Shown here in pieces: positions 17,454 to 27,756 of a stretch of 64,000 nucleotides of DNA. The stretch covers positions 2,179,501 through 2,243,500 of the forward strand of contig NZ_CP155729.1 of the NCBI RefSeq assembly GCF_039724765.1, written 5' to 3'. How positions within the stretch are numbered: the stretch's first letter is position 1; every line of letters begins with the position of its first letter. The notes beneath the pieces were generated by a model, which did not search any database, was not told the origin of the DNA, and was given only the letters and a program-made list of their open reading frames with translations. The stretch is from Sagittula stellata E-37 (GTDB lineage: Bacteria > Pseudomonadota > Alphaproteobacteria > Rhodobacterales > Rhodobacteraceae). Made by a program: the position numbers and the translations under genes.

Positions 17454-22439
<4,986 letters not shown>

Positions 22440-22477
22440 CGACCTCCACGGAGCGCGTTCCAGTTAATTCACACTTT

Positions 22478-22492
22478 GTTCTCATTTAGTTC
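22478..22492 (+). promoter_or_regulatory. LexA (SOS) box
   Basis: GTTC, seven bases (TCATTTA), GTTC: an exact match to the alphaproteobacterial LexA operator GTTC-N7-GTTC. Part of it (CTTTGTTCTCAT, 22474-22485) recurs as a perfect inverted copy at 22512-22523, where GAAC-N7-CAAC gives a second, imperfect box. It lies 59 bases before the small membrane protein gene and after the recG stop. Confidence 0.8.
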
Positions 22493-22551
22493 TTTACTCA
22501 CGGTTAAGAATATGAGAACAAAGGGTCAACAACGGAACACGGAGTGACCCA

Positions 22552-22674
22552 ATGTTCGACATCGTCAAGACCGCGCTCGACCGACAGGATGGAACGCTTT
22601 GGCAGGACACCCTGGGTGCGATCAGCCTTGCGGTGATCCTTCTCGGGGCGCTTCACCTTCCGTCCCTGATCTGA
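22552..22674 (+). CDS. SOS-regulated 40-residue membrane protein (SidA-like by context)
   Basis: ATG at 22552 preceded by a GGAG site opens a 40-residue protein. An N-terminal amphipathic part (MFDIVKTALDRQDGTLWQD) is followed by one hydrophobic helix (LGAISLAVILLGALHLPSLI). It is too short for normal gene finding. A LexA box controls it and a strong terminator follows, so it is a single SOS gene. Caulobacter SidA, a 29-residue LexA-controlled one-helix division inhibitor, is the closest known parallel in size, topology and regulation. No sequence identity is claimed. Division inhibition during DNA damage is inference. Confidence 0.75.
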   Translation: MFDIVKTALDRQDGTLWQDTLGAISLAVILLGALHLPSLI

Positions 22675-22793
22675 GTTTCTGCCCGCGTGTGCCGGTGCGG
22701 GTTGTTGCGTCTCTGTCCCGACGCACACTGCCTGTCCCCTTCGGTTTCCTGCCTGTGACCGAATTCGCCCGACCGGCCCTGACACGCTCCTGA

Positions 22794-22830
22794 CCGCCGC
22801 CTCCCGTCCCGGAGTGCGGCGGCTTTTTTT
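22794..22830 (+). terminator. Intrinsic terminator of the SOS small gene
   Basis: Stem CCGCCGC/GCGGCGG with a 15-base loop containing CCCGTCCCGG, followed by seven T. It abuts the convergent chemoreceptor gene. Confidence 0.85.
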
Positions 22831-24232
22831 ATATCTTGTAGGCCAGGCGCAGACCGCCCCAGTGGCGGCCCGCGACGCAGATCGGAGCGGAGAGGTCTTT
22901 CATCAGCACAAACGTGCCGCCACCCATATCCCGACGGTAGACCTGCAGCAGAAACGGATGTTCGTTCCGACCCGCCTTGAGCCCGACCCGGTCTGCGAAG
23001 ATGCGGCGGTTGCGACAGTTCGCGGCGTTCCATACGGGATCGTCGCCCTGAGGTTTCGAGAATTTTTGGTTGTGCGCCGGAAGGTATCCGTTCCTGTCCA
23101 CCGCCGCGCAGAACACGATGCGGTCGTCGTGTTTCAGCACGGGTTCCTGAATCGGGGGGAGCAATTCCTCAGTGAGCGCGGTGAACGGCGTGATCACCTG
23201 TTCGGGATCGCTTCCCGGCACGGGCCGATAATGTTCGGAGAACAGGTCGTCGAGCGTGATCCTTTCGTCGGCCAAGGCCCGCTCCATCGCCGCGGAGATG
23301 CGCCCGGCGATGTCCTGCACCAGCGTGATCATGGCGCTGTCCTCGCCATTGCCGCCAAGGGCCGCCGCGTGCTGGAGGATCGCCTCTGACGTGTCGATCA
23401 GGGTCAGGCAGCGCTTGTTCGCTTCGTCCACGCCCTCCGCCACGGACGCGATCGATGCGGCGATGTCATCTGCCGCCCGTTCCGTCATGGAAACGGCAGA
23501 GCTCGTGGTGCGCGCGTCTTCCGAAAGGGACCGCGATTCCTGCCGGATCTGTTCGATGCCGTTCTGGATATCGCCCAGGGCCCTGTCGTTTTCCGCGTTC
23601 CGTTTCAGCACCTGCTCCGCCTTGTCCGCCGTATCGCGGGCGGTGGTCTGCAGGTTCGACATCCAGTCCGACAGGCGCGCCACGGTCCCGTTGATGGTTT
23701 CGGCGGCGCTTGCGGTCTTTTGGCTGAGGTCCTGTACCGCTTCGGCGACGATGGAGAACCGCTTGCCGGCCTGTCCCGCGCGGGCAGCCTCGATCTTGGC
23801 ATTGATCGCGAGGATATGCACCTGCCACGCAATGTCGGAGATCACCGAGTTCGAAGTTTTGACCGCACCGAGCATGTCTTCCACCACTTGGCCGTCGGCG
23901 TCCACGGACCGTACCCACTCCGCCAGCGTCTGAGAGCTTTGACCGGTCTCATGAATGAAGGTGCTGGCCTCCTGCGTTTTTTCGAGCGCAACGTCAGAGA
24001 GTTCTGCCATGCGCCGGACCGCCGCCAACATTCGTGCGCTGGAGGTCGCCAGATCCGCCGTACGCGCGCCGATGGCGCTAAGGTCGGACAATTGTCCTTG
24101 GCAGCGCTCATCGAGGTCCGACAGGAAACCGGCCACATCGACCGTTTCCCGGCCCAGACCGGTTGCGGCTGCAGTGAGCCTGGTCAGCTCGTCCGCGGCG
24201 TCCGGTGTTTTCAAATCGGGATCGTGTTGCAT
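22829..24232 (-). CDS. Soluble methyl-accepting chemotaxis-like protein
   Basis: A 467-residue protein without signal peptide or membrane helix. Residues about 60-300 are a long coiled coil with the receptor signalling tip: AWQVHILAINAKIEAARAGQAGKRFSIVAEAVQDLSQKT, matching the MCP hairpin consensus. Residues about 350-467 form a C-terminal sensory-type domain (VFCAAVDRNGYLPAHN, RIFADRVGLKAG, MKDLSAPICVAGRHWGGLRLAYK) common at the end of cytoplasmic receptors. It probably passes a cytoplasmic signal to a CheA kinase encoded elsewhere. Confidence 0.87.
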   Translation of the reverse strand: MQHDPDLKTPDAADELTRLTAAATGLGRETVDVAGFLSDLDERCQGQLSDLSAIGARTADLATSSARMLAAVRRMAELSDVALEKTQEASTFIHETGQSSQTLAEWVRSVDADGQVVEDMLGAVKTSNSVISDIAWQVHILAINAKIEAARAGQAGKRFSIVAEAVQDLSQKTASAAETINGTVARLSDWMSNLQTTARDTADKAEQVLKRNAENDRALGDIQNGIEQIRQESRSLSEDARTTSSAVSMTERAADDIAASIASVAEGVDEANKRCLTLIDTSEAILQHAAALGGNGEDSAMITLVQDIAGRISAAMERALADERITLDDLFSEHYRPVPGSDPEQVITPFTALTEELLPPIQEPVLKHDDRIVFCAAVDRNGYLPAHNQKFSKPQGDDPVWNAANCRNRRIFADRVGLKAGRNEHPFLLQVYRRDMGGGTFVLMKDLSAPICVAGRHWGGLRLAYKI

Positions 24233-26188: not shown

Positions 26189-26401
26189 TCAGTCGTCGCG
26201 ACGTCCATACCGGCGCGCACGGCGTTCTTCCCCGGCCTGGTAAATCAGGATCCACGCAAGGAGGATGAACATCGGGTGAGTGAGACCGCCGGAAAAGATG
26301 ATGGCGGGAACCCAGATGATAAAGACCACAATCGACAGTATGATCCGACCGAGCAGGAGGATCGACAGCGGGGGCAGGAAGAGGGCGAGGACGTAGTTCA
26401 T
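26189..26401 (-). CDS. Pmp3/YqaE-like small membrane protein
   Basis: A 70-residue protein with two hydrophobic helices ([31 protein letters not shown] and [11 protein letters not shown]) and a basic tail ([13 protein letters not shown]). The spacing and the PP in the first helix resemble the Pmp3/UPF0057 family of plasma-membrane stress proteins, but the match is loose. Its ATG overlaps the trmFO stop (ATGA at 26398-26401), so it is translated with trmFO. Confidence 0.75.
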
Positions 26402-27756
26402 GCGGGCTCCTTTTGAGTGGCGAGCCAGCGGCTCCATTCGTCCTTGGCGCGGTCTGTGTAACCCTTGTAGCGCTCGCGGCGCCCCTTGCGACCGCCGCGC
26501 AGCCCGTCGAGGGGGCGGAACAGGCCGAAATTGACATTCATCGGCTGGAAGGTCTTGGCTTCGGCGCCGCCGGTGATGTGGTGAACCAACGCGCCATGGG
26601 CGGTGTCCTGGGGCACGACAGGCAGCGACCGGCCCAGGATCTCGGCGGCGGCCATGCGACCGGCCAGAAGTCCCATCGCGGCGGATTCGACGTAACCCTC
26701 GACCCCGGTCACCTGACCGGCAAAACGGATATTCGGCTTCGACCGCAGGCGCATCTGCGCGTCCAGCAGGGTTGGTGAGTTCAGGAAGGTATTGCGATGA
26801 ATGCCGCCAAGGCGGGCAAAGCTCGCCTCCTCAAGCCCGGGGATCATTTTGAAAACAGAGGCTTGCGCGCCGTACTTCATCTTCGTCTGAAAGCCGACGA
26901 TGTTGTAGAGTGTACCAAGCGCGTTGTCCCGTCGAAGCTGAACCACCGCGTACGCCTTTTCCTCGGGCTTGTGCGGATTGGTCAGGCCAACCGGCTTCAT
27001 CGGGCCGTGGCGCAGAGTCTCGCGGCCACGTTCCGCCATCACCTCTATCGGCAAGCAGCCGTCGAAATATGTCGCTGTTTCGCCCTCGTGGAACTCGGTC
27101 TTGTCGGCGGCCAGAAGCGCGTCTATGAAAGCCTCGTACTGTGGCTTGGTCATCGGGCAGTTGATGTAGGCCTTCTGCTCTTCCTCCGTTTCGCCCTTGT
27201 CATAACGCGACTGGCGCCAGGCGACGTCCATGTCGATGCTCTCGGCATAGACGATGGGCGCGATGGCGTCGAAGAAGGCGAGCCGGTCCGCCCCGGTCTC
27301 TGTCTGGATGGCAGCGCCGAGTTTCTCGGAGGTCAGCGGGCCGGTGGCAAAGATCCAATGCCCCTCTGACGGCAGTTCCGACACCTCCTCGTGGCTGATC
27401 GCGATATTTGGGTGGTCGGTCAGCGCCTTCGTCACCGCTTCGGAAAACGGATCGCGGTCTACGGCGAGCGCCCCGCCGGCGGGCAGCCGGTGCCGGTGGG
27501 CTGTCGAGATGATCAACCCCTCGGCGGTCCGCATTTCCCAATGCAGGAGACCCACGGCGTTCTGTTCGTCATCGTCCGATCTGAAGGAGTTGGAACAGAC
27601 CATTTCTCCCATGTTGCCAGTGCGATGCGCGAAAGTCTTGACTTGGGGACGCATCTCGTGGAGGACCACGGAGACGCCCATGTTCGCCGCTTGCCAGGCC
27701 GCTTCCGACCCGGCCATGCCGCCGCCAACGATGTGGAGTGTATCTGTCTTTGCCAT
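26398..27756 (-). CDS. trmFO: Folate-dependent tRNA m5U54 methyltransferase
   Basis: TrmFO makes 5-methyluridine at position 54 of tRNA, using methylenetetrahydrofolate and FAD. The 452-residue protein has the FAD-binding GGGMAGSE (11-18), Cys54 in [11 protein letters not shown] and the second conserved Cys in [17 protein letters not shown]. It is the upstream gene of a coupled pair with the Pmp3-like gene. Its presence fits a bacterium lacking the SAM-dependent TrmA. Confidence 0.95.

What the first reader, a model, noticed from the sequence alone, without database searches (positions are those of the whole stretch)
22474..22674. A LexA-controlled 40-residue membrane protein between recG and a chemoreceptor gene
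The sequence shows an exact GTTC-N7-GTTC LexA box (22478-22492), a good ribosome site, a 40-residue frame with one hydrophobic helix and a strong terminator. In Caulobacter the SOS division inhibitor SidA is a small one-helix protein under LexA, so this gene could be the Rhodobacteraceae counterpart, found outside the range of gene finders. The division role is inference; the regulation and topology are seen.
Basis: partly seen in the sequence, partly recalled or inferred. Interest (0 to 1): 0.85.

Follow-up and report, generated by a model that had tools for sequence, protein, structure and literature searches.

The report
Conserved LexA-box membrane microprotein beside recG
Directly after the DNA-repair gene recG, this bacterium has a tiny gene that looks switched on by DNA damage and makes a 40-residue membrane protein; it recurs in most of its relatives and is a good candidate for the brake that stops them dividing while their DNA is broken.

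Summary
Window 22552-22674 (+) encodes a 40-residue one-helix protein behind an exact GTTC-N7-GTTC LexA box (22478-22492) and a good ribosome site; a strong terminator lies 120 nt after the stop. The box alone is weak evidence (6 in the window, 2.1 expected); comparison makes the case. A profile finds the protein in 251 of 295 genomes of the same family (Rhodobacteraceae), with no convincing match among non-family genomes of a 385-genome class sample. Of 50 profile-found loci examined (30 best, 20 weak), recG lies upstream in 50 and the exact box in 48, against 1 of 480 background windows. Of 117 loci caught by the promoter pattern alone, 113 carry the protein. The frame is under purifying selection (pN/pS 0.28; shifted frames 1.36, 2.50). 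It matches no Pfam or NCBIfam family; named database copies are 'hypothetical'. A conserved, LexA-box-linked membrane microprotein is therefore well supported. A SidA-like block of late division is the most likely function, but is inferred: damage induction, LexA binding, toxicity and SidA homology were not tested.

The parts
20349..22439 (+). recG, the gene upstream on the same strand; conserved neighbour
   Evidence: ORF list; a homologous RecG C-terminus ends 93-324 nt before the match in 50 of 50 profile-found loci examined and lies upstream of the promoter in 111 of 117 promoter-found loci. Name from the look of the sequence.
22467..22470 (+). degenerate extra LexA half-site (ATTC, 7 nt before the box)
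   Evidence: sequence and mismatch scan. In 39 of 48 relatives with a box an exact GTTC stands 6 nt before it, so the window's version is atypical.
22478..22492 (+). LexA operator 1, GTTC-N7-GTTC
   Evidence: present in 48 of 50 loci
22493..22497 (+). TTTAC, -35-like element abutting operator 1
   Evidence: TTTAC or TTGAC directly after the box in 41 of 48; no consensus sigma-70 promoter was called by the scan
22516..22530 (-). possible operator 2 in the opposite sense (GAAC-N7-CAAC), over the presumed -10/start region
   Evidence: the GAAC stands 23 nt after the box end in 39 of 48 relatives; the second half-site is degenerate; binding is inferred
22541..22544 (+). ribosome-binding site GGAG, 7 nt before ATG
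   Evidence: sequence
22552..22674 (+). 40-residue single-helix membrane protein
22794..22830 (+). intrinsic terminator
   Evidence: fold -22.3 kcal/mol, z -4.39, followed by U7; not listed by the consensus scan

Best explanation
The gene is a fixed part of the SOS regulon of the Rhodobacterales. LexA sits on the operator that abuts the promoter, and possibly on a second one over the start region, and keeps the gene off. When RecA on single-stranded DNA makes LexA cut itself, a short mRNA is made and a 40-residue protein enters the inner membrane, N-terminus inside, with one helix (about residues 20-38) and almost nothing outside. Its near-constant residues (D19, G22, L26, L34, P37) suggest a fixed partner. 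The most likely partner is the late septal machinery (FtsW/FtsI/FtsN), which it would hold back until repair is done, as SidA does in Caulobacter. Shown here by sequence: the gene, its conservation, its box, its recG neighbour, selection on its frame, and a predicted hydrophobic helix. Inferred: LexA binding, induction, topology, partner and division arrest.
For: Gene, box and place are conserved together. The same motif class on the other strand stands upstream of this genome's own lexA (GAACATGCGTAGAAC) and recA (GAACAAGAGGCGAAC). pN/pS is 0.276 over 26 disjoint pairs, pN below pS in 26 of 26; shifted frames give 1.36 and 2.50. Of 134 non-redundant sequences, 132 reach a mean hydropathy of 1.6 over 19 residues and 133 have no K, R, D or E in columns 20-40; D19 and G22 are 99% and 100% constant. 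Several SOS- or damage-induced small membrane proteins are division inhibitors acting at FtsW or its partners: SidA and DidA (PMC4211646, passages), YneA, with low-confidence AlphaFold models pointing the same way for ChiZ, SosA and SidA (PMC13396833, passages). SulA was found in 0 of 61 genomes (37 of this family, 24 others of the class), with E. coli as positive control, so the role is open to another protein.
Against: I found no experiment on any member. The helix-face signal is weak (p 0.058 for residues 18-37 and 0.036 for 19-37 at 100 degrees, among 28 range and angle combinations tried). 41 of 134 sequences have no net positive charge in the first 18 residues, so the N-inside topology is not uniform evidence. 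In 4 of 22 recG loci from profile-negative genomes there is neither box nor gene, and lexA is found in three of those four genomes, so the gene is dispensable in some lineages. The lack of convincing matches outside the family does not support shared descent with SidA. DinQ, another one-helix SOS peptide, acts by another route (PMC3567139, passages).
Confidence: 0.55

Rival explanations
1. An SOS-induced small regulator of some other membrane protein (a protease, transporter, kinase such as CckA, or gene-transfer-agent release), not of the divisome.
For: The same anatomy would serve; near-constant D19/G22/P37 suggest a partner but not which. In R. capsulatus LexA is required for GTA production, apparently through CckA (PMC9638019, passages).
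Against: Broad presence in the family and a fixed place next to a general repair gene fit a general damage function better than a special trait; this is inference.
Confidence: 0.25
2. A TisB/DinQ-like depolarising peptide that makes damaged cells dormant.
For: LexA control, small size and a single hydrophobic helix match DinQ as described (PMC3567139, passages).
Against: DinQ and TisB are held down by antisense RNAs and need processed transcripts. Here the box starts only 69-116 nt before the match in the 30 best loci, the one Rfam match is far below its cut-off and the mRNA fold is not unusual (z -0.21). An antisense RNA is not excluded.
Confidence: 0.12
3. The box serves a non-coding RNA, and the frame is incidental.
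For: The transcript would be short and end in a strong terminator.
Against: Purifying selection in this frame and not in the two shifted ones; near-constant residues across 134 non-redundant sequences.
Confidence: 0.02

Closest known systems
SidA of Caulobacter crescentus (29 residues)
   Same: Alphaproteobacterial, LexA-controlled, small inner-membrane protein (PMC4211646, passages)
   Different: 40 rather than 29 residues; conserved next to recG; no convincing profile match outside the family; division block not shown; SidA's sequence not compared and its gene neighbours not looked up
YneA of Bacillus subtilis, SosA, ChiZ
   Same: SOS- or damage-induced small membrane proteins; YneA's single transmembrane part docks on FtsW TM7 (PMC13396833, passages)
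   Different: YneA and ChiZ carry a LysM domain; here little but the helix end lies outside
DinQ and TisB of E. coli
   Same: LexA-controlled tiny peptides, DinQ with one transmembrane helix (PMC3567139, passages)
   Different: Those have antisense RNAs, and DinQ depolarises the membrane; neither feature was seen here, nor excluded by experiment

Membership tests
LexA (SOS) regulon of alphaproteobacteria | GTTC-N7-GTTC operator at the promoter, conserved in relatives | tested here: met
   48 of 50 profile-found loci against 1 of 480 background windows; in 22 recG loci of profile-negative genomes 15 have it, 3 only the reversed form, 4 neither
LexA (SOS) regulon of alphaproteobacteria | LexA binding and induction by DNA damage | not testable with these tools
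   needs EMSA/ChIP and expression data
SidA family | sequence homology to SidA | not tested
SidA-like small membrane division inhibitors (functional kind) | small single-pass membrane protein | tested here: met
   by prediction only: hydropathy and one predicted helix
SidA-like small membrane division inhibitors (functional kind) | filamentation on expression; contact with FtsW/FtsI/FtsN | not testable with these tools
   needs experiment
Type I toxin (TisB/DinQ) | antisense RNA antitoxin | tested here: inconclusive
   no Rfam match near its cut-off in 22300-23000; short leader; no transcript data
SulA (PF03846) | profile match | tested here: not met
   no Pfam match for the window protein; SulA in 0 of 61 genomes, the window's own among them

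The most novel reading that the evidence does not exclude
This is the order-wide SOS division checkpoint of the Rhodobacterales: a new, independently arisen family of LexA-locked one-helix inhibitors, cut down to about 31 residues in some lineages, fixed beside recG, and braking the FtsW/FtsI septal synthase through a near-constant D-x-x-G ... L-P helix.
Probability: 0.45. Interest if true: 0.75.

Novelty: new member of a known kind. Interest (0 to 1): 0.62.

Why it matters
No SOS division inhibitor of the Rhodobacterales, a major group of marine bacteria, showed up in the listings of my literature searches (an open-licence library only). A single, widespread, uncharacterised candidate at a fixed place makes the question directly testable in genetically tractable strains, and would add another family to the SOS inhibitors proposed to converge on FtsW.

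Tried and rejected
Profile-based DNA scan of genome contigs: no stretch conserved enough; replaced by the promoter pattern. Kuchinski 2016 and Erill 2004 on LexA in alphaproteobacteria: not held; used only as other papers mention them. Phage and plasmid homologues of the window protein: none in phages at E 1; one plasmid match at E 0.9, under a 315-base hypothetical gene between another small hypothetical gene and a ParB-type gene, rejected as chance. A similar cassette behind recG outside the family: the class search matched recG in 180 of 190 genomes and gave loci for the best 30, of which 27 are non-family; my frame finder gave a plausible RecG end for 16 of the 27 by eye, one of which (L254) had the motif, at +101; the other 11 could not be judged. 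Loss of lexA as the reason for loss of the gene: not supported, lexA is found in three of the four genomes without it. Matches to PHROGs (best E 0.0029, one of 30 members, no function given), Pfam and NCBIfam (best E 0.14 and 0.056) and a microRNA model (21.5 bits, cut-off 95) were taken as chance. Chemoreceptor gene downstream: detected in 12 of 50 loci, so not part of the unit. A looser box pattern with two mismatches is no more frequent in the window than chance (15 against 10.15). First box script read minus-strand loci the wrong way round; corrected.

Full report
What was checked. The recG frame ends at 22439; the box GTTCTCATTTAGTTC is at 22478-22492; GGAG stands 7 nt before an ATG at 22552; the frame runs 40 codons to a stop ending at 22674. 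The terminator is real but lies further on, at 22794-22830. The exact motif alone is not strong: 6 in the window where 2.13 are expected, and 191 in the genome against 107 for the reversed pattern.

Conservation of the protein. A single-sequence search of 295 genomes of the same family matched 235 at E 1 or better. A profile from 30 of these (A1) matched 251 of the same 295 at E 0.01 and 141 of 149 genomes of the order at E 0.1 (every row of that sample belongs to the same family). In a class sample of 385 genomes the five matching same-family genomes scored E 3.6e-13 or better; ten other genomes gave E 0.005-0.09, nine of them over part of the profile only and most inside longer frames, and I count none as relatives. 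In a collection of 5.8 billion proteins the profile finds 528 at E 0.01; 120 are listed, and those of them with a name are 'hypothetical protein' or 'Uncharacterized protein'; the single-sequence search had found only the window's own. The 30 members match no Pfam or NCBIfam family convincingly.

Conservation of the promoter and place. Of the 30 best loci 30 carry GTTC-N7-GTTC, 69-116 nt before the match. Of 20 weakly scoring loci that I picked from the order search, 18 do; the two without read ATTC in place of the last GTTC. Background windows from the 30 loci have it in 1 of 480. RecG's C-terminus ends 93-324 nt upstream, same strand, in 50 of 50. Among the 48 loci with a box, 41 have TTTAC or TTGAC at once after it, 39 have a further GTTC 6 nt before it, and 39 have a reversed half-site GAAC exactly 23 nt after it while the bases between vary. 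Fixed spacing over unconserved bases looks like a promoter core held between two LexA sites; the second site is inferred.

Independent test. I examined the 117: 113 carry the microprotein by profile (E below 0.01) within 330 nt, 111 have recG upstream, 110 both (the first 80 also). Three without the protein (L148, L154, L180) also lack recG; I estimate about 4 chance matches for a full scan of 257 billion bases. L213 has recG and the promoter but no protein detected. L164 and L201 have too little upstream sequence to judge recG; L206 has the gene without recG within 1800 nt.

Genomes the profile missed. I examined 26: the 20 listed of the 44 unmatched family genomes, and the 8 unmatched order genomes (G023 and G101 are in both). 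A recG end was found in 22. Of these 15 have GTTC-N7-GTTC and 3 only the reversed form within 400 nt after recG; those 18 also have a short frame with a hydrophobic stretch (about 31-46 residues with starts chosen by eye; not put through the hydropathy test), 14 with D-x-x-G; 4 have neither box nor gene (L109, L111, L113, L114). So the profile count is a lower bound, and divergence explains most of the misses examined.

The protein. From 103 usable genes I took 26 disjoint pairs differing at up to 30% of 99 core bases: pN/pS is 0.276 and pN is below pS in 26 of 26; the same DNA read in the other two frames gives 1.36 (7 of 26) and 2.50 (0 of 26). In 134 non-redundant sequences D19 is 99%, G22 100%, L26 96%, L34 99%, P37 97%. 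Columns 20-40 have no K, R, D or E in 133 of 134; the first 18 columns carry a mean net charge of +1.0, positive in 93 and zero or negative in 41, which suggests N-inside by the positive-inside rule (recalled). AlphaFold2 gives one helix 2-39 (mean pLDDT 80.7, pTM 0.38). A conserved helix face is hinted at, not established.

Regulator. The genome has lexA and recA, with GAAC-N7-GAAC, the same motif on the other strand, upstream of each. SulA was found in 0 of 61 genomes, 37 of them of this family, with E. coli as positive control.

Literature. SidA is a 29-residue LexA-controlled inner-membrane protein that acts on FtsW (PMC4211646, passages); a lexA deletion filaments Caulobacter through sidA (PMC12700426, passages). 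YneA binds FtsW TM7, and low-confidence models suggest the same for SidA, SosA and ChiZ (PMC13396833, passages). DinQ is a depolarising one-helix SOS peptide with an antisense RNA (PMC3567139, passages). The main text of the D. shibae LexA paper has no occurrence of recG or sidA (PMC6473078, passages; supplement not read). Two further roseobacter papers were looked at in passages and gave nothing on this gene (PMC9426580, PMC9044938). Searches listed no paper on this gene that I could recognise by title or abstract; the library is limited.

Judgement. Gene, box-linked conservation and predicted membrane nature: about 0.97. Division brake: about 0.55. The kind of device is known; the family is, as far as these searches show, uncharacterised.

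Noticed in passing
L099, L101, L102; L175 Paracoccus saliphilus: One group keeps box and recG neighbour but has a version that may be only about 31 residues (start chosen by eye), with D-x-x-G kept; it may show the minimal working unit.
   Followed up: partly
L109, L111, L113, L114: Four genomes have no box and no small gene after recG; lexA is found in three of them, the fourth is 82% complete.
   Followed up: partly
L206: Loktanella sp. DSM 29012 has promoter and microprotein without recG within 1800 nt upstream.
   Followed up: no
L127, about 76 nt before the lexA match: The genome's own lexA promoter has GAAC-N7-GAAC followed by a further TAAC, so arrays of more than two half-sites may be common here.
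   Followed up: no
window 26189-26437 (-): An 82-residue, largely hydrophobic frame between larger genes; not scanned.
   Followed up: no
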